Notes under the pieces: generated by a model | Databases searched by the model: none | Told to the model about the DNA's origin: nothing | Seen by the model: only the letters and a program-made list of their open reading frames with translations | Made by a program: the position numbers and the translations under genes | Source of the DNA: Xiphophorus maculatus | Taxonomy: Eukaryota > Chordata > Actinopteri > Cyprinodontiformes > Poeciliidae | NCBI RefSeq assembly: GCF_002775205.1 | Contig: NC_036446.1 | Coordinates: 12,648,565-12,712,564, forward strand | Length of the DNA stretch: 64,000 nt | Reading direction: 5' to 3' | Part shown: in pieces, positions 79 to 55,854 of the stretch | Layout: every line of letters begins with the position of its first letter | Numbering within the stretch: position 1 is the stretch's first letter

Positions 79-532
79 TCTCCACTCCAAATAGAAAAAA
101 GTGCTTCAACTGTGATGAAGAAAACTGCATGAAAAACCCTTAAATGTGCAGGGATGAAAACTACTGCATTGATGTAACAGGTAAGAGGCCAACATTTTGC
201 ATGCTTCATATTATCATCACAAGAACATTAAGACCAGATACAAATGTGTTTATGACATCATAACTATTTTCATTTTCACAGGATATACACAAGGAGAACG
301 TTTCATGATGAAGGGATGTGCCTCTGAGTTGGTGTGCTCAGATCATTTTTCTTTAGTGGTGAGTCAGTTTACTACACGGCCCCCTGTAGCAAAGGTTAGC
401 TGCTGCCGGGGCAACTACTGCAACAGCGCTAGCAGCACCATCAGCCCAGAAAGGAAAAGCAGCGCCAGCAGCACCAGTCCCACCCTGCTGCTCCTGTTGG
501 TGCCTCTGTTGTTTTCTAACTTATTTTCTTAG
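79..532 (+). CDS. LU1: two-domain Ly6/uPAR protein, 3' part only (alpha type)
   Basis: Only exons 4 (79-180) and 5 (282-532, stop TAG) lie in the window; exons 1-3 are to the left. They encode the second LU domain, ending in the LU signature CCRGNYCN, then a Ser/Thr-rich stalk and a hydrophobic tail (LLLLLVPLLFS) typical of a GPI-anchor signal. Exon 5 is almost the same as in LU4. Exon 4 has five A at 132-136 where all other copies have four, and three G at 151-153 where others have four. Between these two offsetting shifts the frame meets a TAA. Many other one-base homopolymer losses in this unit make a consensus error likely, so I would not call the gene dead on this alone. A polyadenylation signal AATAAA lies at 696-701. 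Confidence 0.8.
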
Positions 533-2878: not shown

Positions 2879-3307
2879 TCAGCTCAAAGAAAAGAGCAGA
2901 CTTATTAAATGAAATTTGCTTAAACAGAAAAACATGGCAGCAATGCTGTTGTTTCTATAAGCTACGAACATGAGACAGAAAATAACAGTGACAGCAACAG
3001 GACCAGCAGGGGGCGTACTGGCACTGCTGGTCCTGTTGCAGTAGTCGCCCTGGCAACAGCTAAACTGTTCTGCATCTAATAGATCCATCTCCTGCTTGCA
3101 TTCACTGTGAAGATGAAAATAAAGTTATGTGTCAGTAACATGTTTGTTTCTGGTCTTAGTAGGATAATACTCATTATGTAAAAACATGATATTCTCTTTC
3201 CTGATACTGTGATGCAGGAGTTTTCATTCCCTTCACAGTTGAGGGATTTCATGCAGTTTTCTCCTTCACAGCTGAAGACTTTTTTCCATTTGGGTTGAAC
3301 TTCTAGT
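2879..3307 (-). pseudogene. Inverted LU second-domain pseudogene, unit 1
   Basis: On the minus strand, 3307-3201 corresponds to LU exon 4 (…FSCEGENCMKSLNCEGNENSC) and 3104-2879 to exon 5 (FSCCQGDYCN followed by a hydrophobic tail). Upstream minus-strand sequence matches intron 3 of the LU genes (GAAACAAG(C/T)TGGTGACAA), so this is an inverted partial copy of the gene. It looks dead: the first cysteine of the domain is replaced, the exon 4 donor reads GA instead of GT, exon 5 lacks the segment before CCxxxYCN, and no first LU domain is present. A CTCF-like core CCAGCAGGGGGCG lies inside it on the plus strand at 3003-3015. Confidence 0.75.
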
Positions 3308-3552: not shown

Positions 3553-5049
3553 TTTTTTCAGATTCAAACTTCTGGCCCTGTTTTGGCATGGGTGGCTGGA
3601 CCTCGGATGACAAGGACATGGACTCATGACTGACAGCTGGACAACTGCATCAGTGTGTTTGAATCTGTAAAAAATAATAATAATAAATTTCTGGAATAAA
3701 AAAAAACTTTTAAATCTGAAAAGTAGTTTTGAGTATTTCTGTCAGGTTCAAATCTTTTTCTCCTATTGAACAAACTTTATGGCCCCAATTTAACTTCAAA
3801 TTAGAATCACTGGATGCTAACAGTGGAGCATAGCTTATGATTTTGAAGCTTACGAAGACTAGTGAGATTTGTTGAGTATCAGTGACGTTAACGTCTGATG
3901 AACACGGCCTTTAAGATTCAGGTCACATTTGAAAAGATCGGATACGAATCAAATACACAAGTTGCCTGGGTCGCTTTCGAAAAAATGCGACCTGTATTCA
4001 GACTATCAGCTATAGGTCGCATTACAGCAAAAAAAAAAAAACAGGAAGTGGAAACTGCAGTGCTTATGATAAGCGTAATATGCTTCACTTAGCTCCTTGA
4101 TATGAAAAATAGGAAGTTGAATTTTGGGTTTAAATTCAAGTTTCCTATCGCTATGCAAACCCTCCACACCTTCTGACCTCCTGTATGCAAAATCTACATA
4201 TGCTTTGAATTATACTATTATACTCAATAGCAATCATTGCATGTACACATGCACATAATCACACAAAGAACCGTTGTTCACTTGGAGTTTTCAGGATTTC
4301 AACCGGTGATTGTTTTAACTGCAGTTAAATATGAACAAACTGTCTTCAAAACTCAATAAAGTTCACAGTTTCCTAACGTTGAAGTCCAGAATGAACGTGT
4401 TCAAAGCATCCAAGTTTATAGAAAGCCATCAAGCTCACATATACATAAAATGACTTTTAGCACCTAAACAGCTCTTTATCTGTGAGCGGCACATGTGGTT
4501 TTGTGTTCAACGTCTGCAGGCTGTTCTTGAGAAAACTCTCAACTCATTATCGTTTCTTCCCCGTGTGAAGAACTACAGCTAAGCTCCCTCAGCACATTCA
4601 GGCTAGCTTGGCTCCGCTTAACCGATCCTAGGAAGACGCCGCTGACCGCAGTACCAGGACAGGCCTGCGCTGTGCTCGGTAAGTGCTTGGAAAGAAACAT
4701 TTCTTCAGTTAAACAGGCGTTTGAAGCAGCTACCGCGTAAAGGCGGGCTGCTTTTATAGCTACTTTGTTTTAATTAACGGAGCAACTAGCATTTGTGTTG
4801 GCTAAGCTAACGCGTTAAGGCGGGCTTGGGCACTTTTAATATTTTTTGCTGCAATAATTAAATACTCAGACTTATAAAAAACAATCTAGACAAACATCAA
4901 GATTTTACCAGATAATTATTTTTTGAGAAGAGCTCATATCATCAGCATTTTCCTTGTATTCATTAGAGCGCTGTGATTGGATAAAAAAATGGCCTGTTTT
5001 TCATTGTGCTTCTTTTTGCATCCACTACAAATCTGCCAGTCACAAACAG
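3553..5049. other. Upstream region of LU2: hairpin with A-run, presumed promoter and untranslated exon
   Basis: No protein gene is seen here. A block at about 3900-4032 holds arms AATGCGACCT and AGGTCGCATT (10-bp perfect stem, 20-base loop) followed by an A-run whose length varies between units. From about 4570 comes a presumed untranslated first exon ending at 4678 before GTAAGT. Downstream, in the presumed first intron, two near copies of CGCGTAAAGGCGGGCT lie about 75 bases apart. No clear TATA box. Other units hold the same features at the matching positions. Confidence 0.5.
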
Positions 5050-5126
5050 GAGGATCTGCTTATTTAGGCGAGGTGTAAAACTGGGAGTAGATCCCCTCCA
5101 AGGAAATCCTGTGATCCACCAGCAAA

Positions 5127-6504
5127 ATGTTCCTCTTCACTTTGGTGCTGATGGTGCTGTTTCTACCGGAAGGCAAGTTTTTGATTACGATTAATTTATC
5201 CTAACATTGCATTATTTAGTGTGATTTCATTATATTTAGATTTTCTCCCATTAAAAATTACAATAATAATCTCTTTTCTACTTTTCTTGTTAAACTTTCA
5301 AACTTTTTCTTTCCCCTCTCTATTTTGTGCTGATGTGATTCAGCCATTTTGTCTTGGTTAAGAAAAGGATTTTGGCATTTAGAAATAATTTTATATAATA
5401 GTTTCCTTCATACTTTTGTTGACAATAATTGTTCATTTTCTCTTTGTTTTAATTAGCTGACAACCTGAAATGTAAATGTGAACCTGGCCAATATGGAACT
5501 TGCGCTAAGGAAATAACTGAATGTCCCTCAAAGTACGATTGTTGTTCAGTAACATCACAACTCTATTATTTAGGTACGTATTTGTGAGGTTTCCTGTTGA
5601 TGATTCTTAGTTTGGGAACTCATCAGTTTAAAATTTGTGTTCTTTAATTACAGGTGGTGCAAAGTCTAAGCGGAACTCCAAAGATTGCATTATGTCTGAA
5701 CTGTGTGTTAATTACTCTATCAGCTATGGAGCTTACAGAATTGTACAAAACACCAAGTGCTGCAGTGAAGATCTCTGCAACGCCCAGATTAACTACACAA
5801 AACTTGGTAATTAATTCATTGATTATGTTTTTCAATACTTTGCACAATTTGAATTTGCAGTGCTCACAAACGTTTTTTAACTAACTATAGATTTGGATTA
5901 AAAAACAGAATACACTTAGTTTTGTAATTCCAGCTTCATATACATGTTTTAGGAGAAACAAGTTGGTGACAAAAAATTAAAGCTTTTAAGAAAAAATTAT
6001 AATAATTCTTAATTTCTTTTAAACTGAATAACTATCTCTGTATTTTAGTCTCCACTCCAAATAGAAAAAAGTGCTTCAGCTGTGATGAAGAAAACTGCAT
6101 GAAAACCCTTAAATGTGCACGGGATGAAAACTACTGCGTTGATGTAAAAGGTAAGAGGCCAACATGTTTGCATGCTTCATATTTATCATCACAAGAACAT
6201 TAAGACCAGATCCAAATGTGTTACTTGCATCATAACTATTTTCATTTTCACAGGATATACACAAGGAGAACGTTTCATGATGAAGGGATGTGCCTCTAAG
6301 TCGGTGTGCTCAGATAATTTTTCTTTAGTGATGAGTCAGTTAACTTCACGGCCCCCTGTAGCAAAGATTAGCTGCTGCCGGGGCAACTACTGCAACAGCG
6401 CTAGCAGCACCATCAGCCCAGGAAGCAAAAGCAGCGCCAGCAGCACCAGTCCCACCCTGCTGCTCCTGTTGGTGCCTCTGTTGTTTTCTAACTTATTTTC
6501 TTAG
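5127..6504 (+). CDS. LU2: two-domain Ly6/uPAR GPI-type surface protein (beta type)
   Basis: Coding exons 5127-5172, 5457-5573, 5654-5806, 6049-6150 and 6254-6504 join in frame (all introns phase 1) to 222 residues. Residues 1-16 form a signal peptide (MFLFTLVLMVLFLPEA). The first LU domain (about 18-100, exons 2-3) ends in CCSEDLCN; the second (about 114-187, exons 4-5) ends in CCRGNYCN. A Ser-rich stalk and hydrophobic C-terminus suggest GPI anchoring. N-glycosylation sequons NYS and NYT lie in exon 3. The first intron has a GC donor (AG|GCAAGT); the others are GT-AG. A probable untranslated exon ends at 4678 before GTAAGT, and the start-codon exon begins at 5050 after an AG. Domain layout resembles teleost uPAR-like and phospholipase-A2-inhibitor/LYPD-like proteins; ligand and function cannot be told. 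The first domain has 11 cysteines, one more than an even LU set (CC at the end of exon 2). Confidence 0.88.
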
Positions 6505-8376
6505 CTCACAGAAGCTACTGAATTGCTGCCATGTTTTCTTTTTAATCACAATTCATTTTATAAACCTGTTCTTTTTAATTGATTCTATAGCTTGGTTAGC
6601 TAAGCAGCATGTTATAATCAACAACATCCTCTATACTTTGTTGTTCTATACTAAATAATCTTCCTCAATAAACACAATTTTTTTTAATTCTGGGTCCAGT
6701 ACCGATCTGATTCTAAATGTTTAGTTTTGAAAAATAAAATGACTTGATGTTATAGATGTGGAATAAACATGTTTCATTTTCTTTGATTTAATATTAAAAC
6801 TTGTTTTAATCAAAGTTAAAAGCTTTCAGAGCCCAAGATTGTAGAGTTTGAATGGAAAACTAACCAACATGAATGTAAAATTCAACCTGGAGAGACTCAG
6901 AGAGAAAGTAGCTGTCTTACTTTCTTAGCTGGTAGAAATAATTGTATTGCTACCAGGTTTTCTTTTTATGCATAATTCATTTAATAAATCTGTTTTTTTC
7001 TTTTCATTGATTCTCTATAAATTCACTAAGATAAGACCAAGCAAAATTCTGTAAACATCCTCAATACTTCACTGCTGTTGTTCTCTAAAAACAAATCCTG
7101 CTGAATAAATGCATTAAAAAATAATTCTGTGTACTTTTCTGATTCTAAATGTTTATTTTTGAAACTGATGCAACTGAGGAAGATTGACTGAAATGATTTA
7201 AAAACATGAACTGAAAGGCTGGGGGTAAAAGGAGAGAGGGAATAAAATTAGGTGTGAGTGAAGGATTTTTTTAAGATAACTGAATGGCTGTTGCCACATG
7301 AATAATTTGCTTTGTCAAAAAATGCGTCCCTCCTCAAACATGAAGAAATAAAGAGTTAAGAGTGAAATAGCTTTTTCTACATAATCACCTGTTCTCTGAG
7401 CTAAAGGTATGAGTTTCATACCAACAGGACAATATTTGGGGAATATCGTCCAGCTTTAACCTTTTACAATCTAAAACTCTCACCACTTTCAAATACATAA
7501 TGTTTTACATTTACTCAATTTAAATAGATTAATTTATCAAACATGTTTTATCCAAATGTTCAGAGGATCTTTGGACACTAATCCTGTCATTAGTGCATAA
7601 GTCCTCTATTTGTGCCAGACATAATCTAATTCAATGCAAACTTGTTTATTGCACTTATTATATAAACACGTCTGGCCAAGTTTTACACCAACGTTTCTCC
7701 TGCCTGTGATAGAGGCCAACATTCTCCAGGCAAGTTGATCCACACTATCTGGCTTTGTCCTCAGCTTATTGGTCCAAAGCTTCTGATGATGCACATTTAT
7801 TTAATTTTGAAGCATTTTATGTTAAAATGTGTAAAAACTATTATCATTTTCTGTTTGATCTCTTTAATTAAACAGAATATTGAATAACTTGCTGTTTCTA
7901 TACGTTTTGGTTAATTCAAGGTTCAAACTACTAACCTTGAGCTGGCAAGGTTAGTAGTTTGTTATAAACAACCAGACTACATGGCAAGATGTAATCATGG
8001 AACTCTGCTAATAAATATTCAAACTATATCAGTTTTTCCTGTAAAATCAGATCGTTTTGTTATTTTGGGGATCAAACAGATTATTTGTGCTTAAAGTCAC
8101 AAATGTCTTGAAATGGCTCTTGGCTCACACCTCTGCTTTATTCTCTAACTGCAGCAAAGTGCTGGAAACTGGTTTCACTGGACACAAGATTTCCTCTTCT
8201 GCAAGACTAAAGGACCAACAATGAATCATGTTCATGTAAAAATCTGTGAGCTGTAATCATCAGTCTTTAAAATTAAAGCATAAATGCACTGTGATGAACC
8301 TTGGTGTAAATTCAACTGGAAGATGCTTTTCTTTTCATCTGCTCAGTCAATCACCTCATCATGCGCCTCCTTCCAT

Positions 8377-8456
8377 CTACGCCGATCTCGTCTGGGTCGG
8401 GCCTGGTTAATACTTGAATGGGAGACTGCCTGGGAATACCAGGTGCTGGAAGCTTT
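8377..8456 (+). pseudogene. 5S rRNA pseudogene, unit 2
   Basis: Same truncated 5S copy with the same internal deletion as unit 1. Confidence 0.85.
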
Positions 8457-8469
8457 TACTGGCTCTTTT

Positions 8470-8786
8470 ACTAAAATGTGAAAGATGATACTAAAGCAAA
8501 AATGTATCACAGCAGAGGTAAGAATACATGTAGAATGGTCAGTGGTGAGTTAAAGAGTGTGAAAATGCAAAAGTCTTTAGTGCCCCCCTGGTGGTGACAA
8601 AAGCACCTGATATAGTAATACCAGGTGCGGTAAGAGTGTAGTCACCACCAGGGGGCACTAACAACTCTTTAACTCCACATTTTCACACCTTTATAAATTC
8701 GGCACAGATCAAAAACTTCTGCCATTTATCATACCTCTGACACATGTTGCTTCAATGTTATCTTTCACAAAATATATTTTTGCTAA
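8470..8786. repeat. Foldback repeat with paired CTCF-like motifs, unit 2
   Basis: Same foldback. The right motif is the exact core CCACCAGGGGGCA; the left motif has one extra C. Confidence 0.7.
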
Positions 8787-8890
8787 TAAACATTTAGAAT
8801 CAGAATTTTTATATATATTTTGGTCTTTGTTTACTAAATTTATAGAGAATCAGCTCAAGAAAAAGAGCAGACTTATTAAATGAAATTTGC

Positions 8891-9279
8891 TTAAACAGAA
8901 AACATGGCAGCATTGCTGTTGTTTCTATAAGCTACGAACATGAGACAGAAAATAACAGTGACAGCAACAGGACCAGCAGGGGGCGTACTGACACTGCTGG
9001 TCCTGTTGCAGTAGTCGTCCTGGCAACAGCTAAACTGTTCTGCATCTAATAGATCCATCTCCTGCTGCATTCACTGTGAAGATGAAAATAAAGTTATGTT
9101 GTCAGTAACATGTTTGTTTCTGGTCTTAGCAGGATAAATACTCATTATGTAAAAACATGATATTCTTTTTCCTGATACTGTGATGCAGGAGTTTTCATTC
9201 CCTTCACAGTTGAGGGATTTCATGCAGTTTTCTCCTTCACAGCTGAAGAACTTTTTTCCATTTGGGTTGAACTTCTAGT
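8891..9279 (-). pseudogene. Inverted LU second-domain pseudogene, unit 2
   Basis: Same two relic exons as in unit 1, with the GA donor and the shortened exon 5. CCQDDYCN replaces CCQGDYCN here. The 3' end resembles the LU 3' UTR (GCTGCCATGTTTTCT). Confidence 0.75.
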
Positions 9280-11117
9280 CTAAAGAACTGCAGAATCATA
9301 ACATTTTTTTCTTCACAGCTCTCACTTTTTTTATTGTCACCAGCTCCTTTCACCCAAAATATCTGCATAGGTATGGAGCTAAATTGGGACCACAAAGGTT
9401 CTTCAGAAGAAAAAAAAATGAAACTGGGAAAAACGTTTGAAATTAAAAAATAACATTTGAAACTAAGAAAATGTTCAAAACTACTTTTTAGATTTAAGAT
9501 ATTTTTGAGCTTCAGATATGTCCATTTTTCAGATTCAAACTTCTGGCCCTGTTTTGGCCTGGGTGGCTGGACCTCGGATGACAAGGACATGGACTCATGA
9601 CTGACAGCTGGACAACTGCAGTCATTGTGTTTGAATCTGTAAAAAATAATAATAATAAATCTCTGGAATCAAAAAAACCTTTAAATCTGAAAAGTAGTTT
9701 GGAGTATTTCTGTCAGGTTCAAATCTTTTTCTCCTATTGAACAAACTTTATGGCCCCAATTTAACTTCAAATTAGAATCACGTGGATGCTAACAGTGGAG
9801 CATAGATTATGATTTTGAAGCTTACGAAGACTAGTGAGATTTGTTGAGTATCAGTGACGTTAACGTCTGATGAACACGGCCTTTAAGATTCAGGTCACAT
9901 TTGAAAAGATCGGATACGAATCAAATACACAAGTTGCCTGGGTCGCTTTCGAAAAAATGCGACCTGTATTCAGACTATCAGCTATAGGTCGCATTACAGC
10001 AAAAAAAAAAAAAAAAAAAACAGGAAGCGGAAACTGCAGTGCTTATGATGAGCGTAATATGCTTCACTTAGCTCCTTGATATGAAAAATAGGAAGTTGAA
10101 TTTTGGGTTTAAATTCAAGTTCCTATCGCTATGCAAACCCTCCACACCTTCTGACCTCCTGAATGCAAAAATCTACATATAATTGCTTTGAATTATACTA
10201 TTATACTCAATAGCAATCATTGCATGTACACATGCACATAATCACACAAAGAACCGTTGTTCACTTGGAGTTTTCAGGATTTCAACAGGTGATTGTTTTA
10301 ACTGCAGTTAAATATGAACAAACTGTCTTCAAAAACTCAATAAAGTTCACAGTTTCCTAACGTTGAAGTCCAGAATGAACGTGTTCAAAGCATCCAAGTT
10401 TATAGAAAGCCATCAAGCTCACATATACATAAAATATGACTTTTAGCACCTAAACAGCTCTTTATCTGTGAGCGGCACATGTGGTTTTTGTGTTCAACGT
10501 CTGCAGGCTGTTCTTGAGAAAACATCTCAACTCATTATCGTTTCTTCCCGTGTGAAGAACTACAGCTAAGCTCCCTCAGCACATTCAGGCTAGCTTGGCT
10601 CCGCTTAACCGATCCTAGGAAGACGCCGCTGACCGCAGTACCAGGACAGGCCTGCGCTGTGCTCGGTAAGTGCTTGGAAAGAAACATTTCTTCAGTTAAA
10701 CAGGCGTTTGAAGCAGCTACCGCGTAAAGGCGGGCTGCTTTTATAGCTACTTTGTTTTAATTAACGGAGCAACTAGCATTTGTGTTGGCTAAGCTAACGC
10801 GTTAAGGCGGGCTTGGGCACTTTTAATATTTTTTGCTGCAATAATTAAATACTCAGACTTATAAAAAACAATCTAGACAAACATCAAGGATTTTACCAGA
10901 TAATTATTTTTTCAGAAGAGCTCATATCATACAGCATTTTCCTTGTATTCAATTAGAGCGCTGTGATTGGATAAAAAAAATGGCCTGTTTTTCATTGTGG
11001 TTCTTTTTGCATCCACTACAAATCTGCCAGTCACAAACAGGAGGATCTGCTTATTTAGGCGAGGTGTAAAACTGGGAGTAGATCCCCTCCAAGGAAATCC
11101 TGTGATCCACCAGCAAA

Positions 11118-12496
11118 ATGTTCCTCTTCACTTTGGTGCTGATGGTGCTGTTTCTACCGGAAGGCAAGTTTTTGATTACGATTAATATTATCCTAACATT
11201 GCATTATTTAGTGTGATTTCATTATATTTAGATTTTCTCCCATTAAAAATTACAATAATAATCTCTTTTCTACTTTTCTTGTTAAACCTTTCAAACTTTT
11301 TCTTTCCTCTCTCTATTTTGTGCTGATGTGATTCAGCCATTTTGTCTTGGTTAAGAAAAGGATTTGGCATTTTGAAATAATTCTATATAATAGTTTCCTT
11401 CATACTTTTGTTGACAATAAATGTTCATTTTCTCCTTGTTTTAATTAGCTGACAACCTGAAATGTAAATGTGAACCTAGCCGCTACGGAACATGCGCTAA
11501 GGAAACAACTGAATGTTCCTCAGAGGACGATAGTTGTTCAGTAAGAACACAAGTCTATTATTTAGGTACGTATTTGTGAGGTTTCCTGTTGATGATTCTT
11601 AGTTTGGGAACTCATCAGTTTAAAATTGGTGTTCTTTAATTACAGGTGGTGCAAAGTCTGAGCACAATTCCAAAGGTTGCATTACGTCTGATCTGTGTCT
11701 TAATTACTCTATCAGCTATGGAGCTTACAGAATTGTACAAAACACCAAGTGCTGCAGTGAAGATCTCTGCAACGCCCAGATTAACTACACAAAACCTGGT
11801 AATTAATTCATTGATTATGTTTTTCAATACTTTGTACAATTTGAATTTGCAGTGCTCACAAACGTTTTTTAACTAACTATAGATTTGGATTAAAAAACAG
11901 AATACACGTAGTTTTGTAATTCCAGCTTCATATACATGTTTTAGAAGAAACAAGTTGGTGACAAAAAATTAAAGCTTTTAAGAAAAAATTATAATAATTC
12001 TTAATTTCTTTTAAACTGAATAACTATCTCTGTATTTTAGTCTCCACTCCAAATAGAAAAAAGTGCTTCAACTGTGATGAAGAAAACTGCATGAAAACCC
12101 TTAAATGTGCAGGGGATGAAAACTACTGCATTAATGTAACAGGTAAGAGGCCAACATGTTTGCATGCTTCATATTTATCATCACAAGAACATTAAGACCA
12201 GATCCAAATGTGTTACTTGCATCATAACTATTTTCATTTTCACAGGATATACACAAGGAGAACGTTTCATGATGAAGGGATGTGCCTCTGAGTTGGTGTG
12301 CTCAGATCATTTTTCTTCAGTGATGAGTCAGTTTACTACACGGCCCCCTGGAGCAAAGGTTAGCTGCTGCCGGGGCAACTACTGCAACAGCGCTAGCAGC
12401 ACCATCAGCCCAGGAAGCAAAAGCAGCGCCAGCAGCACCAGTCCCACCCTGCTGCTCCTGTTGGTGCCTCTGTTGTTTTCTATCTTATTTTCTTAG
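11118..12496 (+). CDS. LU3: two-domain Ly6/uPAR GPI-type surface protein (gamma type)
   Basis: Exons 11118-11163, 11449-11565, 11646-11798, 12041-12142 and 12246-12496 give 222 residues with the LU2 architecture and the same GC donor after exon 1. A probable untranslated exon ends at 10665. The mature protein differs from LU2 at roughly 30 positions, for example EPSRYGTC for EPGQYGTC, SSEDDSCSV for PSKYDCCSV, and SEHNSKGCITSDLCLN for SKRNSKDCIMSELCVN. The extra cysteine of LU2's first domain is serine here, leaving 10 cysteines. Exon 4 gains a sequon (NVT). Introns differ from those of LU2 by only a few bases. Reading frame and splice sites are intact. Confidence 0.88.
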
Positions 12497-14775: not shown

Positions 14776-15334
14776 TAAACATTTAGAATCAGATTTTTTT
14801 ATATATTTTGGTCTTTGTTTACTAAATTTATAGAGAATCAGCTCAACGAAAAAGAGCAGACTTATTAAATGAAATATGCTTAAACATAAAACATGGCAGC
14901 AATGCTGTTGTTTCTATAAGCTACGAACATGAGACAGAAAATAACAGTGACAGCAACAGGACCAGCAGGGGGCGTACTGGCACTGCTGGTCCTGTTGCAG
15001 TAGTCGCCCTGGCAACAGCTAAACTGTTCTGCATCTAATACACATGTGTCAAACTCAAGGCCCGCGGGCCACATGTGGCCCGCTACGTCATTGTATGTGG
15101 CCCTCTCCCCCCACCACCGTTTTACAACCCCATTGATTGACTTAAAATAGGTTTTGAGCTAGAATTGACTACAAACTACATCTCCCATAATGCCTTCCGA
15201 TGGTTACCAGCCAACATTACGGCTTCTCGCCACTAGAGTGCAACAGAGTCACCTCAAGCTGATTATTTATTTTCCCAGCGAATAAAACATCGACAAGCTA
15301 ACAAGCTGAAGAGCGAAGTTCCCGTGATGTTTCA

Positions 15335-15630
15335 ATCGAGGACTTTTACCGTCTCCTGCCCCCTGATTTGATGCCGCAGCTTCGACTCCATGCAGCTCGT
15401 GTGTTTTGTCCATGTTTGGAAGCACCTATCTGTGCGAACAGATGTTTTCAATAATGAATTTAATCAAGACCAAGACCAGATCGCGCATTACTGACGAAAA
15501 CCTACATGCCGTTTTGCGGATCGCCACAGCACAAGAACTAAAACCAGACATGACAACTGACCAGGGGAAAACGGTGCCAGACATCCGGCCAGAAAACATT
15601 GGTAAGCACAAACAAACTAAATTTAAATAG
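15335..15630 (+). pseudogene. hAT transposase C-terminal fragment
   Basis: The 15406-15630 frame begins [15 protein letters not shown] and contains [20 protein letters not shown], the hATC dimerisation segment common to Charlie-type and GTF2IRD2/ZBED-like proteins. Just upstream another frame reads [20 protein letters not shown], the expected preceding residues, so a frameshift lies between them at about 15400. The BED finger and most of the catalytic RNase H-like domain are absent. No function expected. Confidence 0.85.
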
Positions 15631-15666
15631 AATTAATGTAAAACCAAAACTCAGTATACTGGAATA

Positions 15667-16805
15667 TAGTGATGGTGAGATGAAGCCTCATGAGGCATTG
15701 AACCACTTGAGCCAACTGGTTCGAGAAAGGGTTCATTTCTTGAGGCTTCATGTGCACACGAAACCACCTACTGGCCAGGTGTATAATCACAGCCAGCTGT
15801 ATCTTAACACGTGTGATCCATTGAATTTTTGTCTGTTATGGCTCTTGGGAATGACTTCACAAAAGGTGTAGGACGAAATCATTTGTCTACATAAATTATG
15901 TATACACATATGTGTATAATAAAATATTGTTTGAATGTATCCTCTGTGTGTAATTATTCCCAAAATAGTCATGTGTCATGTGATGTGGCATGTTGTGTAA
16001 TAAAGTTTTTCTGTGACTCTAGAAAAATGGCCTGGGCTTAATCAGGCAGAGGACAGTGAAAGTGCTTGTGGAACTAGGGAGGGGTAGTGAATAGGCTAAT
16101 GCTTGTGTAACTTGGATGATTTCATGCATTTTTATTAAGAAACAACAATTTCTCCACAGATTTTGGTTTCAAACGACTTCTCTTTTTTGACACTACATGG
16201 ATGAGGTGTTATTATTGTACCCCAACTCCTTGGAGCACAATAAACACCTCACCTTTACAGAAAATAAGAAACAGTGAAAAATACAGTTCCTCATAAGCAA
16301 ACCTAATGCATCTGCAAATGTTCAGTTCACCTTACCTTGTTAGGGCTTATCAAATCAAAATGTTCCCACATAGGGGAAATCCTCCTCTTTCTCGCCGGCT
16401 CCATCCTACTCCTATCCTGTCCTCCTGCTCCTAAATCTCCTATCTACCTATCTATCTCTCTCCTAAACTCTCCAAACACCAAACTAACTGTCTCAAACTA
16501 AATAACCACTATCCAAACTCTGCTATCCAAACTATCAAAACTCTATCCACTCTCTCAACTGACCGCAACTCGCCTACAACAACCCACATTTTGAATGGAG
16601 CCTGTGGGGTTTCTAAAGCTGTCAAAACCCGCGCCAACATCTGAGCCACTTCCCGAAGCAGTCACGTGGTACAGCCGGGCAGCGAGGCTTCGGACGTCAT
16701 CGTTTTCGGCTCCTCCCCTAAATGAAGCAAGCCTCGATACGCGCTTTACGGAAACGCCCCCTCCATTACTCGACACACGCCTCGGCACATCACGTAACAT
16801 CACTA
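15667..16805. mobile_element. Non-autonomous hAT-type element nested in the larger hAT
   Basis: Ends TAGTGATG and CATCACTA are perfect inverted repeats fitting the YARNG hAT end rule. The flanking 8-bp duplication CTGGAATA is exact (15659-15666 and 16806-16813). Both ends carry a motif around AAGCCTC (about 15680 and 16728). The inside has a CTAT-rich microsatellite near 16441 and no convincing transposase. Confidence 0.85.
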
Positions 16806-17341
16806 CTGGAATATGTTTAATAGTTTATTGATTTTGCTTGTGTTTTGTTTTGTGTTTATTTACAGAACACAACACAATAGGATGTGTGTGAGTTGGTGAC
16901 AGGGTGAAAAGGATCAGCTTTGTGTTCAAGGACAGGCAGCATCACCTCATTGTTTTGTTCTTATGTGAAATACATGTTCGTTGTGTAATAAATAACGAAA
17001 AAGTTTTGTGAATGAAGTTGAGAGTTAATATCGAAACTTGTTTTTAGTCTTTGTCTGCTTATCTTTAAAGCAGACAAAGATTAATTTTCCCAGCGAATAA
17101 AACTGAAACATCGACAAGCTAACAAGCTAAAGGGCGAAGTTTAGCTGAGCAGTTTAAAAATACTGAGCATATTTTTAAAGTGCTCAGTTTAAAAATATTG
17201 TAATTTTTAAACTAAGCAGTAATTTTACATCCATGCAAACTCAAATGTAATATTTAAAACTTGAATACATAAAATCAGTTATTTAACAATATGAGGTGTT
17301 GTTTAATTTATTTTTAACATTGTATTTTCATACATTTATGC

Positions 17342-20754: not shown

Positions 20755-22133
20755 ATGTTCCTCTTCACTTTGGTGCTGATGGTGCTGTTTCTACCGGAAG
20801 GCAAGTTTTTGATTACGATTAATATTATCCTAACATTGCATTATTTAGTGTGATTTCATTATATTTAGATTTTCTCCCATTAAAAATTACAATAATAATC
20901 TCTTTTCTACTTTTCTTGTTAAACTTTCAAACTTTTTCTTTCCCCTCTCTATTTTGTGCTGATGTGATTCAGCCATTTTGTCTTGGTTAAGAAAAGGATT
21001 TTGGCATTTAGAAATAATTTTATATAATAGTTTCCTTCATACTTTTGTTGACAATAATTGTTCATTTTCTCTTTGTTTTAATTAGCTGACAACCTGAAAT
21101 GTAAATGTGAACCTGGCCAATATGGAACTTGCGCTAAGGAAATAACTGAATGTCCCTCAAAGTACGATTGTTGTTCAGTAACATCACAACTCTATTATTT
21201 AGGTACGTATTTGTGAGGTTTCCTGTTGATGATTCTTAGTTTGGGAACTCATCAGTTTAAAATTTGTGTTCTTTAATTACAGGTGGTGCAAAGTCTGAGC
21301 GGAACTCCAAAGATTGCTTTATGTTTGATCTGTGTCTTAATTACTCTATCAGCTATGGAGCTTACAGAATTGTACAAAACAGCAAGTGCTGCAGTGAAGA
21401 TCTCTGCAACGCCCAGATTAACTACACAAAACTTGGTAATTAATTCATTGATTATGTTTTTCAATACTTTGCACAATTTGAATTTGCAGTGCTCACAAAC
21501 GTTTTTTAACTAACTATAGATTTGGATTAAAAAACAGAATACACTTAGTTTTGTAATTCCAGCTTCATATACATGTTTTAGAAGAAACAAGTTGGTGACA
21601 AAAAATTAAAGCTTTTAAGAAAAAATTATAATAATTCTTAATTTCTTTTAAACTGAATAACTATCTCTGTATTTTAGTCTCCACTCCAAATAGAAAAAAG
21701 TGCTTCAACTGTGATGAAGAAAACTGCATGAAAACCCTTAAATGTGCAGGGGATGAAAACTACTGCATTGATGTAACAGGTAAGAGGCCAACATTTTTGC
21801 ATGCTTCATATTTATCATCACAAGAACATTAAGACCAGATACAAATGTGTTTATGACATCATAACTATTTTCATTTTCACAGGATATACACAAGGAGAAC
21901 GTTTCATGATGAAGGGATGTGCCTCTGAGTTGGTGTGCTCAGATCATTTTTCTTTAGTGGTGAGTCAGTTTACTACACGGCCCCCTGTAGCAAAGGTTAG
22001 CTGCTGCCGGGGCAACTACTGCAACAGCGCTAGCAGCACCATCAGCCCAGAAAGGAAAAGCAGCGCCAGCAGCACCAGTCCCACCCTGCTGCTCCTGTTG
22101 GTGCCTCTGTTGTTTTCTAACTTATTTTCTTAG
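20755..22133 (+). CDS. LU4: two-domain Ly6/uPAR GPI-type surface protein (alpha type)
   Basis: Exons 20755-20800, 21086-21202, 21283-21435, 21678-21779 and 21883-22133 give an intact 222-residue frame. A probable untranslated exon ends at 20301. Exon 2 encodes the same protein as in LU2. Exon 3 is its own version (SERNSKDCFMFDLCLN, and QNSKCC for QNTKCC). Exon 4 is close to gamma (AGDENYCIDVT). Exon 5 matches LU1 (ELVCSDHFSLVVSQFTTRPP, SPERKSS). The gene is therefore an exon mosaic relative to the beta and gamma types. The solo LTR of unit 4 lies about 1 kb upstream of the start-codon exon (18660-19707), before the presumed untranslated exon, so it could affect this gene's promoter; that is inference. 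Confidence 0.88.
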
Positions 22134-32758: not shown

Positions 32759-34138
32759 ATGTTCCTCTTCACTTTGGTGCTGGTGGTGCTGTTTCTACCG
32801 GAAGGCAAGTTTTTGATTACGATTAATATTATTCTAACATTGCATTATTTAGTGTGATTTCATTATATTTAGATTTTCTCCCATTAAAAATTACAATAAT
32901 AATCTCTTTTCTACTTTTCTTGTTAAACCTTTCAAACTTTTTCTTTCCTCTCTCTATTTTGTGCTGATGTGATTCAGCCATTTTGTCTTGGTTAAGAAAA
33001 GGATTTTGGCATTTTGAAATAATTTTATATAATAGTTTCCTTCATACTTTTGTTGACAATAAATGTTCATTTTCTCTTTGTTTTAATTAGCTGACAACCT
33101 GAAATGTAAATGTGAACCTAGCCGCTACGGAACATGCGCTAAGGAAACAACTGAATGTTCCTCAGAGGACGATAGTTGTTCAGTAAGAACACAAGTCTAT
33201 TATTTAGGTACGTATTTGTGAGGTTTCCTGTTGATGATTCTTAGTTTGGGAACTCATCAGTTTAAAATTGGTGTTCTTTAATTACAGGTGGTGCAAAGTC
33301 TGAGCACAACTCCAAAGGTTGCATTACGTCTGATCTGTGTCTTAATTACTCTATCAGCTATGGAGCTTACAGAATTGTACAAAACACCAAGTGCTGCAGT
33401 GAAGATCTCTGCAACGCCCAGATTAACTACACAAAACCTGGTAATTAATTCATTGATTATGTTTTTCAATACTTTGTACAATTTGAATTTGCAGTGCTCA
33501 CAAACGTTTTTTAACTAACTATAGATTTGGATTAAAAAACAGAATACACTTAGTTTTGTAATTCCAGCTTCATATACATGTTTTAGAAGAAACAAGTTGG
33601 TGACAAAAAATTAAAGCTTTTAAGAAAAAATTATAATAATTCTTAATTTCTTTTAAACTGAATAACTATCTCTGTATTTTAGTCTCCACTCCAAATAGAA
33701 AAAAGTGCTTCAACTGTGATGAAGAAAACTGCATGAAAACCGTTAAATGTGCAGGGGATGAAAACTACTGCATTAATGTAACAGGTAAGAGGCCAACATG
33801 TTTGCATGCTTCATATTTATCATCACAAGAACATTAAGACCAGATCCAAATGTGTTACTTGCATCATAACTATTTTCATTTTCACAGGATATACACAAGG
33901 AGAACGTTTCATGATGAAGGGATGTGCCTCTGAGTTGGTGTGCTCAGATCATTTTTCTTCAGTGATGAGTCAGTTTACTACACGGCCCCCTGGAGCAAAG
34001 GTTAGCTGCTGCCGGGGCAACTACTGCAACAGCGCTAGCAGCACCATCAGCCCAGGAAGCAAAAGCAGCGCCAGCAGCACCAGTCCCACCCTGCTGCTCC
34101 TGTTGGTGCCTCTGTTGTTTTCTATCTTATTTTCTTAG
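32759..34138 (+). CDS. LU6: two-domain Ly6/uPAR GPI-type surface protein (gamma type)
   Basis: Exons 32759-32804, 33091-33207, 33288-33440, 33683-33784 and 33888-34138 give 222 residues. It is the partner of LU3: exons 2, 3 and 5 encode the same protein, with one silent change in exon 3 and KTVK for KTLK in exon 4. The signal peptide reads LVLVVLF where LU2-LU5 have LVLMVLF, shared only with LU7. A probable untranslated exon ends at 32306. First-domain cysteine count is 10, as in LU3, and the exon 4 sequon NVT is kept. Confidence 0.88.
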
Positions 34139-38745: not shown

Positions 38746-40124
38746 ATGTTCCTCTTCACTTTGGTGCTGGTGGTGCTGTTTCTACCGGAAGGCAAGTTTT
38801 TGATTACGATTAATATTATCCTAACATTGCATTATTTAGTGTGATTTCATTATATTTAGATTTTCTCCCATTAAAAATTACAATAATAATCTCTTTTCTA
38901 CTTTTCTTGTTAAACTTTCAAACTTTTTCTTTCCCCTCTCTATTTTGTGCTGATGTGATTCAGCCATTTTGTCTTGGTTAAGAAAAGGATTTTGGCATTT
39001 AGAAATAATTTTATATAATAGTTTCCTTCATACTTTTGTTGACAATAATTGTTCATTTTCTCTTTGTTTTAATTAGCTGACAACCTGAAATGTAAATGTG
39101 AACCTGGCCAATATGGAACTTGCGCTAAGGAAATAACTGAATGTCCCTCAAAGTACGATTGTTGTTCAGTAACATCACAACTCTATTATTTAGGTACGTA
39201 TTTGTGAGGTTTCCTGTTGATGATTCTTAGTTTGGGAACTCATCAGTTTAAAATTTGTGTTCTTTAATTACAGGTGGTGCAAAGTCTAAGCGGAACTCCA
39301 AAGATTGCATTATGTCTGAACTGTGTGTTAATTACTCTATCAGCTATGGAGCTTACAGAATTGTACAAAACACCAAGTGCTGCAGTGAAGATCTCTGCAA
39401 CGCCCAGATTAACTACACAAAACTTGGTAATTAATTCATTGATTATGTTTTTCAATACTTTGCACAATTTGAATTTGCAGTGCTCACAAACGTTTTTTAA
39501 CTAACTATAGATTTGGATTAAAAAACAGAATACACTTAGTTTTGTAATTCCAGCTTCATATACATGTTTTAGGAGAAACAAGTTGGTGACAAAAAATTAA
39601 AGCTTTTAAGAAAAAATTATAATAATTCTTAATTTCTTTTAAACTGAATAACTATCTCTGTATTTTAGTCTCCACTCCAAATAGAAAAAAGTGCTTCAGC
39701 TGTGATGAAGAAAACTGCATGAAAACCCTTAAATGTGCACGGGATGAAAACTACTGCGTTGATGTAAAAGGTAAGAGGCCAACATGTTTGCATGCTTCAT
39801 ATTTATCATCACAAGAACATTAAGACCAGATCCAAATGTGTTACTTGCATCATAACTATTTTCATTTTCACAGGATATACACAAGGAGAACGTTTCATGA
39901 TGAAGGGATGTGCCTCTAAGTCGGTGTGCTCAGATAATTTTTCTTTAGTGATGAGTCAGTTAACTTCACGGCCCCCTGTAGCAAAGATTAGCTGCTGCCG
40001 GGGCAACTACTGCAACAGCGCTAGCAGCACCATCAGCCCAGGAAGCAAAAGCAGCGCCAGCAGCACCAGTCCCACCCTGCTGCTCCTGTTGGTGCCTCTG
40101 TTGTTTTCTATCTTATTTTCTTAG
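38746..40124 (+). CDS. LU7: two-domain Ly6/uPAR GPI-type surface protein (beta-type mosaic), last gene of the array
   Basis: Exons 38746-38791, 39077-39193, 39274-39426, 39669-39770 and 39874-40124 give 222 residues. Exons 2-4 and most of exon 5 match the beta genes LU2 and LU5. The signal peptide (LVLVVLF) matches LU6, and the C-terminus (SILFS, against SNLFS in beta) matches the gamma genes. The gene is therefore a patchwork most easily explained by gene conversion or unequal exchange between units. A probable untranslated exon ends at 38293. Beyond its unit the array stops at 43151. Confidence 0.88.
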
Positions 40125-42002: not shown

Positions 42003-42082
42003 CTACGCCGATCTCGTCTGGGTCGGGCCTGGTTAATACTTGAATGGTAGACTGCCTGGGAATACCAGGTGCTGGAAGCTTT
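42003..42082 (+). pseudogene. 5S rRNA pseudogene, unit 7
   Basis: Same truncated 5S copy with the GGTAGAC variant of unit 6. Confidence 0.85.
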
Positions 42083-42095
42083 TACTGGCTCTTTT

Positions 42096-50882: not shown

Positions 50883-53800
50883 ATGTTGTGTGTAACTCTA
50901 TTGGCGCTGGCTGCCAGCTTGACTGTGAGCCTGGCCAGACCCAACATCCATCCTCTGTCCAGTGAAATGGTCAACTACATCAATAAGCTCAATACAACCT
51001 GGAAGGTGAGTTTATTCTTGTTTTTCCTCCAGAATCCTGTGAATGTTTTACTAATTCATATTTCCACTCTGCAGGCTGGCCACAACTTCCGTGATGTTGA
51101 CTTCGGCTATGTCAAAAACCTCTGCGGCACTTTGCTTAAGGGACCTAAGCTGCCTATCATGTAAGCCTCACAAGATCAATAGAAATGTAATATTTCTAGA
51201 TGCATTTTCAACTTCTACTTTCAATATGTTTGAAGGTAGATGCTTTTTATGAGCCAAAACAAGCCAGTTCATCCTTGAGAATTGGAAGGAAAATGATTTA
51301 TGGCTTAAGAAAAAAATCTTCTTGGATACCCCCAAATAAAATCCAGTTAAACCAGTTGTGTTTAGAGGTACAGCTATATGTAATCTATGTTTAAACTGAG
51401 CTTGAATACAAGAGACCAAATCTCAACCGTTTTTGATGTAGATTCAAAACACTGTTTATATCAAAACTGTCATGTTGTGGGGATGCTTTTGATAGGAACG
51501 CTGGTGAGCTTATTGTGCAAAATTCAAATTTTTTTACTCTCCCATTTTGGTCTCGACTGCCTCTGAAAACAACTCAAGCATTTAGAAAAAGCACCAAGCC
51601 GTTTTTGGCAATAAATTAATGTTTTGTTGTCTGGAAAACGAGCCGTTTCAAAAATTGTTTCAAAATTCAATTTAATTCAAAAATTAATTTGAATGTTAAG
51701 TCACATTCAACGGGCAGTCCGTCGTTCCCTAGCAACACAAGCTGAGCTCCAGCATGTTTGGTCAGCTGGTTTTACTGCTGTATGGTCTGTACAATGGCTG
51801 CTGGAAAAGACAAGTGTTTTGTTGTTGATTAACCAACCAGAATCCACTTGCCACATTCCTGCAGGTTGTGCAGGAGGCTCTACGTCTGCTTTTCAAAGAT
51901 GTGCAGTTGTGTAATTACGCATCTGTTTGCAGTCATTTTCCCAAGAGTGTAAACGTTGAGTGTAAGCGTTGAGCAGCAGCTTATTTGGATTTAAAGTGAC
52001 AGGAGGCCCTAAAACAGGGGTGTCAAACTCTAGTCCTCCAGGGCCGCAGTCCTGCAACTTTTAGATGTGCCTCTGCTGCATCACCTGAATAGAATAATTA
52101 GGTCATTAGCAAGGCTCTGGAGAACTGATCTACACAAGAAGGAGGTAATTAAGATATTTCATTCCAGTGTTTTGTACCTGTGGCACATCTAAAAACTTCA
52201 GGACAGCGGCCCTTGAGGACTGGAGTTTGACACCTGAGTCCTAAAAAATCTCTAGGAGCTCAAAACAGGCAGAACTGAGCAGACTAACATCTCATTATCT
52301 AAGAATGATTTTGTCCAAAAAAAATAGATGGAACATGTCTTTCGTAAACCTGTCCTAGCCTTTTCAAGGAAGCATAATAATTCACCTTTAAGTCCGAGGC
52401 TTAGGCTCACCTTGTAGAAGAACAAACAACCGTAGAAACAATGGAGTAGTTATTAAAAAAAGCATATTTAAATATTGAAATCGACTATTTAAGCTACGTT
52501 CAGTTCAGAGTCTGTGGTGAGATTTAAATTCAGATGCTCTCCATCCTGTCTGAAGTGGCTTGAGCCATTTTGCCAAAAATAGGTCAACATTTCTCGATAT
52601 TAATGGCTCCAGTTTCTCAAAATTATATGTTGCAGCTTCTGCTGATTTAAAAATGTGTAAAGTAAATAGTTTCATGGGGTAACACTGTCTCTTCAGGGTC
52701 CAGTATGCAGAAAGCATGAAGCTGCCAGCAGAATTTGATTCCAGAGAGCAGTGGCCCAACTGTCCCACCCTGAGGGAGATCAGAGACCAGGGCTCCTGTG
52801 GATCCTGCTGGGTGAGGGAAACTCATCGCTAAATTATAAATGCAAATTCAGCTTTCAGCTTTTTTTTAAATAAAACTTTGAACACTTTTATTTTAGTAAT
52901 TCTCATGCCATGTGGTTGTTCTGCCTGTAGGCGTTTGGTGCAGCAGAGGCTATCTCTGACCGTATCTGCATTCACACCAACGGGAAGGTCAGTGTGGAGA
53001 TCTCCCCTCAGGATCTGCTCACCTGCTGCGACGAGTGTGGAATGGGGTAGGTCCTTCAAAGTTTGTCTTCCTTTGGACATAATTCTGACTTTTATTAGCT
53101 TGGTCAGTGACTAAACTCGTGATTTAACACTTGGTTAGCGTTGTGCTTGTACAAAGTATTTGCTACACAGCTAACCTTAAGTGGATAGTATAAATAATCC
53201 TTTAAAAACATTTTTTGTCAAAGTAACTTGTGTTTAAAGTTTATATGACTCCAAAATGAGTTCCAGTTTTTGAATGTGATGCAGGATAATTGCATCATCC
53301 TGCATCACGTCTACAGAGATGGTGATTCATTTATATTTTGTTTCTTAAGATGTGGTGGTGGCTATCCTCCTCAAGCTTGGGAATTCTGGACCACAGATGG
53401 ACTGGTGACTGGAGGGCTCTATAACTCTCATATTGGTAAGTTCATTTACACAAGTGTTCATCTTAAAAGTGAAAATAAGTCAAGATGAGAATATAACAAT
53501 ATCTCACAACGCAGTGTTGAATGCTGGCGTAATGATTCAAATTATTATGATTTTGAATGGCTATATGCAAACTATCTTGTTTTTGGCTGAGAATGGCATA
53601 TATGCATCAAAGTCCATTGTTTTTTATTTTAAATATATATTTTGAATTGGTGTCAGTGGTACAGAAATTCCATCTTGAAGGGGGGAAAAAAAGAACTTTC
53701 TCAAAAATACATGGTCTAGTCAAATTTTATTCAGTTTGTGTCAACACTAAGATTTACCAAATAAATACCGAAGGATGCAGATGGTTTACACTTTCTTGAT

Positions 53801-55854
53801 GAAATCTTCTTCTAAAAAGTATTTTTTTTCTTTTAAAGTTTTCAAAATAATAGCAGATTCTTTATTTATGAAGGAATTTAAGTTTCAGAATTTATAAACA
53901 GGCTCTCACCTTTTCACAAGGTATGTATAGGTCTATTTTATGCCCTGCATTGTTTTTCCAACTAAATTATACTTTGGTGTGCAATCGGTGTAAAATATTT
54001 GTCTAATTAAAATCTCTATTCAGTGTTTCTCAGTTTTTGGATGCTAAAATGACTGATTAGTCCGTGGTAACACTTGAGTCGTTGTGTTTCTTGCAGGTTG
54101 CAGGCCGTACACAATCGAACCCTGTGAGCACCACACCAACGGCAGCAGACCTCCCTGCACTGGGGAGGGCGGCAACACGCCAGACTGTGTTAAACAGTGT
54201 GAGACTGGATACACACCAAGCTATGAAAAGGACAAATACTATGGTAAGAATGCTGCCGAGCAGTTCAGATGAGCGTAACTGAGCTGTATGTTTACATACT
54301 TGCTGCTCATTGTTTAGCAAAAATCAAAATACAAACATAGTCTTGTAGAAATAACAAAATCAGTCATTCAAGACACATTTAATGACGATAAGATGTGAAG
54401 ATTTAATTCTGCTGCAGTTTAAAAATGGCTTGTTTGAAAGAAGTATTTGAAGGGAACATATTATGCAAAATTCTCTTTTTACTTGTTTTTATATTTTTAT
54501 TTGGGTCTTGACTGTTTCTAAAAACAACCCAAGTGCTTAAAACACTCGGCTGTTTTCTTTTTCGACAAAAACGTTAATGTTCTTTAACATCTGGAAAATG
54601 CAATCTTTCAAAAACCTCCCAACTGTTAAGTCACATTAGACAAGCAATTACCTAGCAACCCAAGCTCAGCCTCGTTACCTAGCAACCGAAGCTGACCGCC
54701 TGCATGTTAGGTCGGTTCTTATTACTGCTGTACGAGTTGTACAATGGCTGCTGGAAAAGACAAGTGTTTTGTTGTTGACTTGCCATCCAGAAACCATTTG
54801 ATGCATTCTTGTTGGTTATGCAGGAGGCTCCACTTCCGCTTTTCAAAGACATACAGTAGTGTAATTGCCCATCAGTTTGCAACCATTTTCACGTGTGAGT
54901 GGCCAGCAGCAGCTTATTCAGATTTAAAGAGACAGGAGGCCCTAAAACAGCTCATTTTGAAAGCAATCAAAGTAGGCAGAACTAACCTCAATAAAATCTG
55001 ATTATCTAAGAATATGTGCAAAAATGTAATGTATTATATAGCCCATCGAACTTTTCTAACCTGTTCAAGGAAGCATAATAGGTGACCTTTAAGAATCATC
55101 ACTATTGGACACATACAGGATTTTAACCTGAAGTTTGTTGCAGGTAAAACGGCTTACAATGTACCACCAGAAGAAGATCAGATCAAATCAGAGATCTACA
55201 AGAATGGACCTGTAGAGGGAGCGTTTAAAGTCTACTCAGATTTCCCTTCCTACAAGTCTGGTAAGAAGAGCAGCATAAAATACTCTTACAAATATAATCT
55301 CAGCAGACCACGGACGGGTGAAATGATAACTGCTCCTGATTTGCTTACTGTATTTCTTCTGTCCTCATCAGGTGTGTATCAGCATGTGTCAGGAAGTTAT
55401 GTGGGAGGCCATGCCATTAAGATCCTGGGCTGGGGAGAGGAAAATGGTGTTCCTTACTGGCTCTGTGCAAACTCCTGGAACACTGACTGGGGTGATAATG
55501 GTGAGCAGGAATTTACTAGCATTAACTAAATTGCACTAGGCTCCAGTGTTGGCACATTTCGATAATGCGTCAAACTGAAAACACACCAAACCTAATCTGG
55601 ACACCAGTTTTATAGATATAAGCAGGCTTATAGATGTGTGTCTATTCTAATTAACCCTCATATCGCCCACACAAAGCTGTGACCTATGTATGCTTTCACT
55701 CAGTCAAGAGCCTCCATTCATTTCTTGTTTTATACTGAACATTAAATATACTAAGTTCACTTTATTGCTTTAATTTTCAGGATACTTTAAAATCCTCCGT
55801 GGATCAGATCACTGTGGCATTGAGTCTGAGATCGTGGCTGGAATTCCCAAGTAA
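50883..55854 (+). CDS. ctsb: Cathepsin B (lysosomal cysteine protease)
   Basis: Nine coding exons (50883-51005, 51075-51160, 52697-52811, 52931-53046, 53350-53435, 54097-54243, 55144-55260, 55372-55500, 55781-55854) join in frame to 330 residues, the normal family length. Residues 1-18 are a signal peptide, then a propeptide; the mature chain starts at about Leu79 ([14 protein letters not shown]). Papain-family catalytic residues are Cys107 (QGSCGSCW), His277 ([11 protein letters not shown]) and Asn297 (NSWNTDWG). The occluding loop with paired His187-His188 (CEHHTNGS) identifies cathepsin B and its dipeptidyl carboxypeptidase activity. Sequons at N38 and N190 fit mannose-6-phosphate routing to lysosomes. 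All introns are GT-AG. Introns hold dispersed repeats. The gene looks intact. Confidence 0.97.
51500..52392. repeat. Dispersed ~0.65-kb repeat, copy 1 (ctsb intron after exon 51075-51160), with a MITE inside
   Basis: Matches 54450-55091 over its length: ACAATGGCTGCTGGAAAAGA, CAAGTGTTTTGTTGTTGA, GACAGGAGGCCCTAAAA and CAAGGAAGCATAATA occur in the same order. The second copy ends in imperfect inverted repeats (AAGGGAACATATTATGC and AAAGGTCACCTATTATGC), like a MITE; superfamily uncertain, piggyBac-like possible. Confidence 0.75.
52015..52238. mobile_element. hAT MITE nested in the repeat above
   Basis: About 224 bp, starting CAGGGGTGTCAAACTC and ending GAGTTTGACACCTGAG, with CCCTAAAA before and TCCTAAAA after. 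The other repeat copy (54450-55091) has a single CCCTAAAA here, the empty site. A very common teleost MITE type. Confidence 0.85.
54450..55091. repeat. Dispersed ~0.65-kb repeat, copy 2 (ctsb intron after exon 54097-54243)
   Basis: Partner of 51500-52392 without the hAT MITE. Contains a short local duplication of CCTAGCAACC(C/G)AAGCT at about 54651-54692. Confidence 0.75.

What the first reader, a model, noticed from the sequence alone, without database searches (positions are those of the whole stretch)
5127..12496. Coding exons diverge far faster than introns between LU genes
Comparing LU2 with LU3 by eye: exon 2 (117 bp) has about 13 differences, 11 of them amino-acid-changing, while the next 80-bp intron has one. 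Exon 3 has about 8 changing and 1 silent; exons 4 and 5 have about 13 changing and none silent. The ~240-bp third intron has about three differences. Introns cannot normally be more conserved than exons, so either strong diversifying selection acts on the exons, or conversion homogenises everything except the exons. Snake three-finger toxins show the same accelerated-exon pattern. Roles in mate/gamete recognition or defence would fit but are speculation.
Basis: partly seen in the sequence, partly recalled or inferred. Interest (0 to 1): 0.88.

Follow-up and report, generated by a model that had tools for sequence, protein, structure and literature searches.

The report
Fast-evolving exons in platyfish Ly6 array
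In a platyfish, a row of nearly identical cell-surface protein genes differs mainly in the parts that change the protein, a mark of selection for new recognition surfaces like that seen in snake toxins, though what these proteins bind is unknown.

Summary
Observation confirmed almost to the base. The window holds a ~6-kb tandem array of two-LU-domain (Ly6/uPAR) genes beside ctsb; one copy's protein equals a Xiphophorus maculatus record. The seven copies are three gene types in order C-A-B-C-A-B-A, so the evidence is one three-way comparison, not six genes. Among A, B and C, replacement sites differ at 39/514, silent sites 3/152, introns 15/708, intergenic DNA 52/4395; dead LU exons inside the repeat 0/232. 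Silent exon sites evolve like introns; only replacements are in excess (omega about 4, p=0.0065; CMH against local silent sites p=8e-5). This favours diversifying selection over conversion that merely spares exons. Conversion is active too: variant patterns form blocks, and 22 of 37 derived residues recur in other Xiphophorus paralogues (8.8 expected), so much of the difference may be reshuffled old variation. The 15 private residues alone would not prove selection, and copies of one type show no excess. Ligand and tissue are unknown. The pattern is known from snake toxins; I saw no account of it for platyfish in the papers searched.

The parts
79..532 (+). LU1, 3' end only (exons 4-5), type C; exon 4 carries two 1-bp indels that break the frame
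5127..6504 (+). LU2 gene, type A; exons 5127-5172, 5457-5573, 5654-5806, 6049-6150, 6254-6504; 222 aa
11118..12496 (+). LU3 gene, type B; exons 11118-11163, 11449-11565, 11646-11798, 12041-12142, 12246-12496
20755..22133 (+). LU4 gene, type C; protein identical to X. maculatus P0001
26756..28134 (+). LU5 gene, type A; coding sequence and introns without a substitution against LU2
32759..34138 (+). LU6 gene, type B; 2 replacement and 1 silent difference from LU3
38746..40124 (+). LU7 gene, type A; 2 replacement differences from LU2
5457..5573 (+). Exon 2 of LU2: densest block of replacements (13/117 variable among A,B,C)
5654..5713 (+). First 60 bp of exon 3 of LU2: 10/60 variable among A,B,C
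8936..9274 (-). Dead LU gene fragment (exon 4-like 9168-9274, exon 5-like 8936-9060) inside the repeat unit; 0/232 variable among A,B,C; internal control. A copy lies in each of the seven units
50883..55854 (+). ctsb (cathepsin B), 9 exons, 330 aa; conserved neighbour

Best explanation
This is a young tandem array of two-LU-domain, apparently GPI-anchored surface proteins of the teleost PINLYP/uPAR-like type. Unequal crossing-over and gene conversion keep the 6-kb units 98-99% alike. Shown: amino-acid-changing differences between the three types far exceed the silent and intron background, which are equal to each other, and nearly all sit in the mature domains while signal peptide and tail are conserved. 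Inferred: diversifying selection keeps new replacements, and keeps conversion tracts that bring in other replacements, chiefly in fingers I-II of LU domain 1 and finger III of LU domain 2; so a pool of surface variants is shuffled among copies while silent DNA is homogenised. Inferred further: the proteins bind a changing partner (a pathogen molecule, or a mating or gamete partner), and A, B and C differ in charge and in N-glycosylation motifs to that end.
For: Among A,B,C: N 39/514, S 3/152, introns 15/708, intergenic 52/4395; N v intron p=7e-6, N v S p=0.006 (one-sided), S v intron p=1. Dead LU exons 0/232. ML codon model omega 3.98, LRT p=0.0065; 3.57, p=0.014 for codons 18-190. The N rate exceeds both the S rate and the flanking-intron rate in each of exons 2-5; CMH p=7.6e-5. 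Substitution spectrum alike in coding (22 ts/20 tv) and non-coding (35/36), against an exon-targeted mutator. Mosaic blocks: 49 pattern switches v 71.7 expected, 0 of 20,000 shuffles as low. LU2 and LU5 units without a substitution over 4926-8235. Across ten chosen Xiphophorus paralogues the signal peptide (mean entropy 0.08) and tail (0.22) are conserved and LU1 residues 18-73 variable (0.92). The neighbour ctsb differs from the X. hellerii record at 3/330 residues.
Against: Only three types, sharing blocks, so sites are not fully independent and p-values are optimistic. The B-C pair alone is not significant (omega 2.55, p=0.096; N v S p=0.072); A-C against local silent sites gives p=0.056. 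Within a type there is no excess: LU3 v LU6 N 2, S 1, introns 4/708; LU2 v LU5 none at all. 22 of 37 derived residues also occur in other paralogues; the 15 private ones (15/514) are close to the intron rate. Selection may thus lie mostly in the past of the donors. Only 3 silent changes carry the S estimate; exon 2 alone has 2/28. No coding DNA of related fish could be reached, so no codon-site test across species.
Confidence: 0.75

Rival explanations
1. Conversion homogenises introns and flanks but not exons; exons simply keep old, near-neutral differences and no positive selection is needed.
For: Conversion is real. 22 of 37 derived residues are shared with other paralogues. The exon 2 silent rate of 2/28 is above its flank rate of 5/160, though with tiny numbers.
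Against: Old neutral exon tracts would carry silent differences in proportion; S is 3/152 against N 39/514 and equals introns. Variant blocks run across exon-intron borders. The conserved signal exon and tail are not explained.
Confidence: 0.14
2. Relaxed constraint: redundant copies drift, some becoming pseudogenes.
For: LU1 has a broken frame; a dead LU gene fragment lies in each unit.
Against: Replacements exceed, not merely equal, the silent rate. LU2-LU7 all have intact frames and splice sites and keep the ten-cysteine pattern of each domain. LU1's indels look like consensus noise (26 of 31 indels against U4 are missing bases in U1).
Confidence: 0.06
3. Assembly artefact: collapsed haplotypes or polishing errors produce the exon differences or the C-A-B duplication.
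For: Units 1-2 carry many 1-bp missing bases; U1-U3 and U4-U6 are 0.5-0.7% apart, so that duplication could be haplotypic.
Against: Exon differences are substitutions that mostly change amino acids, recur in separate units, and are found in public X. maculatus proteins (P0001 = LU4; P0004 = LU3 apart from two stretches at exon borders). U3 alone carries two insertions. A, B and C differ within either triplet. The public records may stem from the same assembly.
Confidence: 0.05

Closest known systems
Teleost two-LU-domain PINLYP/uPAR-like proteins (2D-TFPs)
   Same: Two canonical ten-cysteine LU domains with hydrophobic tail; 89 relatives at E<=1e-3, fish wherever a species or genus name is shown. 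Tandem PLA2-inhibitor/Ly6-PLAUR clusters are reported in five cichlids (PMC8831618, passages read). Teleosts investigated, other than Lates, have only two-LU proteins and no three-domain uPAR (PMC6337849, passages read).
   Different: Platyfish array with an accelerated-exon signature; PMC8831618 lists X. maculatus as lacking its 'complete' repeat model, and the passages I saw mention a selection test only for another gene family.
Snake three-finger toxins (accelerated exons, ASSET)
   Same: Three-finger fold, conserved introns and signal exon, divergent mature exons (PMC2474615, PMC2711939, passages read).
   Different: Two domains plus tail, not a one-domain secreted venom toxin; scattered substitutions without indels, not wholesale segment replacement.
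Amphibian sodefrin precursor-like factor (SPF)
   Same: Two TFP domains, repeated duplication, fast evolution; fish 2D-TFPs are placed as the outgroup with the ancestral cysteine pattern (PMC8904931, passages read).
   Different: SPF has altered cysteines; the fish proteins keep 10+10. Courtship function unknown here.
TEX101, C4.4A, uPAR, CD177 (mammalian multi-LU proteins)
   Same: Foldseek matches to uPAR 5e-9, C4.4A 6e-7, TEX101 1e-4, CD177 2e-4.
   Different: 13-22% identity in the 33 matches at E<=0.001, TM-scores 0.24-0.54 by query length; uPAR has three domains.

Membership tests
Ly6/uPAR (LU, three-finger) superfamily | UPAR_LY6 profile match | tested here: met
   PF00021 above cut-off with two stretches in types A and B
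Ly6/uPAR (LU, three-finger) superfamily | Ten cysteines per domain ending CCxxxxCN | tested here: met
   Alignment A2 (66 proteins): C21,23,31,38,45,66,72,90,91,96-N97 and C114,117,122,128,135,152,158,180,181,186-N187, all invariant or at least 90%
Ly6/uPAR (LU, three-finger) superfamily | Three-finger fold | tested here: met
uPAR proper | Three LU domains | tested here: not met
   Two domains only
Snake three-finger toxin | Single-domain secreted protein | tested here: not met
   Two LU domains and hydrophobic C-terminal tail
SPF pheromones | Altered cysteine spacing in at least one domain | tested here: not met
   10+10 canonical pattern
SPF pheromones | Expression in courtship gland or sperm and effect on mates | not testable with these tools
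   No expression data at hand
PLA2 inhibitor (PINLYP) | Binds or inhibits phospholipase A2 | not testable with these tools
   The name on P0001 is a database label
GPI-anchored protein | C-terminal GPI signal | tested here: inconclusive
   Hydrophobic tail, model helix 209-220; no dedicated predictor run
Accelerated-exon multigene family | Replacement rate above silent and intron rate, silent = intron | tested here: met
   for the three types together; single pairs are weaker
ASSET-type segment switching | Exon segments replaced by unrelated sequence | tested here: not met
   No exon indels; type differences are scattered substitutions

The most novel reading that the evidence does not exclude
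Swordtails and platyfish carry a hypervariable LU-domain recognition system at the ctsb locus, in which a shared pool of finger residues is shuffled among tandem copies by short conversion tracts and kept by selection, while introns, flanks, signal exon and anchor are homogenised. It would be a cassette-like repertoire for pathogen or mate recognition in a classic hybridisation model.
Probability: 0.25. Interest if true: 0.75.

Novelty: new member of a known kind. Interest (0 to 1): 0.45.

Why it matters
If true, a gene cluster in Xiphophorus, a model for hybrid incompatibility, melanoma and sexual selection (background recalled), is diversifying in the manner of venom genes beside a nearly frozen housekeeping gene. 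The dead LU exons inside each repeat give an unusually clean built-in control. Knowing where the proteins are expressed would tell quickly whether this is immunity or mating.

Tried and rejected
Conversion sparing exons as sole cause: rejected because exon silent sites are not raised. Exon-directed mutation: rejected because the ts/tv spectrum is the same in and out of exons. Relaxed constraint: disfavoured. Counting six genes as independent: rejected after unit distances showed a C-A-B repeat. Using LU divergence from X. hellerii as a strict rate control: dropped, because the protein database is clustered at 90% identity and closer X. hellerii members may sit inside clusters whose representative is another species.

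Led nowhere: the window's own assembly could not be searched (genome search did not complete), so no further LU copies and no codon data from other fish. The PDB sequence search gave one match at E=0.37, taken as chance. Rfam at gathering score found nothing. In the listings of the paper searches I saw only PMC8831618 naming this gene cluster in fishes. VIA-align rows for proteins other than uPAR align 62-85 residues, about one domain, and were not used.

Full report
What is there. The window contains seven copies of a ~6-kb unit. LU2-LU7 are complete five-exon genes with intact 222-residue frames and conserved splice sites, the first intron being GC-AG; LU1 is a 3' end at the window start. 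Each protein starts with a signal-like peptide and ends in a hydrophobic tail; types A and B were scanned and show two UPAR_LY6 stretches. [quoted passage not shown] Downstream lie ctsb (330 aa; Peptidase_C1) and a gene with an ADP_PFK_GK exon. P0001, P0008 and P0027 of X. maculatus are listed on a contig of one length, and X. hellerii ctsb (P0157) on a contig of the same length as X. hellerii LU proteins P0009, P0010 and P0024, which suggests linkage but does not show it.

The array has three types. Whole-unit distances are 0.46% (U1-U4), 0.47% (U2-U5) and 0.67% (U3-U6); U7 joins U5 and U2 at 0.52% and 0.72%; the other 16 pairs are 1.0-1.8%.

A v B (LU2-LU3): exon 2 13/117, intron 2 1/80, exon 3 9/154, intron 3 3/241, exon 4 5/103, intron 4 0/103, exon 5 9/250, intron 1 5/286, with no exon indels. 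Site effects: 33 replacement and 3 silent for U5-U3. NG86 with path averaging gives 32 and 4 for LU2-LU3, dN 0.065, dS 0.027. The densest 117-bp window holds 13 differences; 5000 random placements never exceeded 11.

Which sites are in excess. Among A, B and C: replacement 39/514, silent 3/152, introns 15/708, intergenic 52/4395. Six of the 15 intron differences lie in intron 4 of type C, four of them within 5 bp, perhaps one event. N v introns p=7e-6, N v S one-sided p=0.006, S v introns p=1. With LU6 as type B the figures are N 41, S 2, introns 13/709. The dead LU exons on the minus strand of each unit, a built-in control, vary at 0/232 among A,B,C and 2/232 among five units. A GY94 likelihood fit gives omega 3.98 (p=0.0065), 3.99 with separate branch lengths per exon, 6.26 (p=0.001) with LU6 as type B, A-B 3.33 (p=0.024), B-C 2.55 (p=0.096, not significant), A-C no silent change (p=0.0012). 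With exons 2-5 each set against their own 80-bp intron flanks and silent sites, CMH p=7.6e-5 for A,B,C, and silent v intron p=0.62; the A-C pair alone gives p=0.056. Within types there is no excess: LU3 v LU6 shows N 2, S 1, introns 4/708, and LU2 v LU5 no substitution in the gene. The weak point is that only three silent changes underlie S.

Conversion is nonetheless at work. Along the unit the odd-one-out type changes 49 times among 113 variable sites, against 71.7 in shuffles (0 of 20,000 as low). B is the odd one from 4925 through exon 2, C through intron 4. LU2 and LU5 units have no substitution from 4926 to 8235, yet 28 over the whole unit. Of 37 residues variable among A,B,C, 22 derived states also occur in ten chosen Xiphophorus paralogues, 8.8 expected for random one-step replacements; the ancestral state was taken as the one commonest in those ten, a proxy. 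Either conversion from those paralogues or repeated selection of the same residues explains this. The 15 private residues (15/514) by themselves are near the intron rate, so this data set does not prove selection on new point mutations; it shows that what distinguishes the types is overwhelmingly replacement change.

Where the changes are. Residues 18-73 (fingers I-II and start of III of domain 1) hold 18 of 37, 105-139 hold 6, 155-190 hold 9, the tail 3, 74-104 only 1, 140-154 none, and the signal peptide none (secondary structure); LU6 and LU7 share one further change at residue 9 of the signal peptide. The same regions vary across the ten paralogues: mean entropy 0.08 in the signal, 0.92 in 18-73, 0.22 in the tail; residues 140-154 vary there (1.10) though not among A,B,C. 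Type A carries charge +8, B and C +2; A has an extra N-glycosylation motif at 161, B at 137, C neither; A and C have an extra cysteine at 44. Effects of these are inferred. The neighbour ctsb differs from the X. hellerii record at 3 of 330 residues, while LU types A, B and C match the nearest listed X. hellerii protein (P0009) at 69-74%. This contrast is only suggestive: the pairs are not known to be orthologues, and the database is clustered at 90%, so closer X. hellerii members may be hidden.

Verdict. Real, well quantified, and of a known evolutionary kind; diversifying selection with conversion is the best account, 0.75. Function is open between immune and reproductive recognition, and nothing here decides it.

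Noticed in passing
window 79-182 (LU1 exon 4): Two 1-bp indels break the frame; 26 of 31 indels between U1 and U4 are missing bases in U1, and 16 of 20 between U2 and U5 are in U2, so consensus noise near the window start is likely.
   Followed up: partly
window 2966-3294, 8936-9274, 14925-15038 + 17758-17862, 24578-24916, 30572-30910, 36570-36908, 42557-42901, minus strand: A dead LU gene fragment (exon 4-like and part of exon 5) sits in each unit; no exon 1-3 match was seen in the 60 of 66 minus-strand hits printed.
   Followed up: partly
window ~15041-17631: hAT-like insertion flanked by an 8-bp ATCTAATA duplication, with a degenerate transposase-like stretch, only in the unit between LU3 and LU4 (the hAT label is recalled from sequence features).
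   Followed up: partly
window ~18660-19707: About 1.05-kb insertion with inverted TGTTAAGGAA/TTCCTTAATA ends and a CTCC duplication, resembling a solo LTR (label recalled).
   Followed up: no
window 41995-42080; similar stretches seen by eye in other units: 5S rRNA-derived stretch in the repeat unit, 26.3 bits, below the gathering score of 38 (which searched 41900-43450 only).
   Followed up: no
window 42189-42301, minus strand: Hairpin scoring 31.6 bits for mir-617 (gathering score 80), probably chance or a transposon-derived inverted repeat.
   Followed up: no
window 4926-8235 v LU5 unit: LU2 and LU5 units have no substitution over 3.3 kb but 28 elsewhere: a recent homogenisation tract.
   Followed up: partly
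LU protein residue 44: Types A and C have a 21st cysteine absent in B and in the ten other Xiphophorus paralogues looked at; an unpaired cysteine might allow dimers.
   Followed up: no
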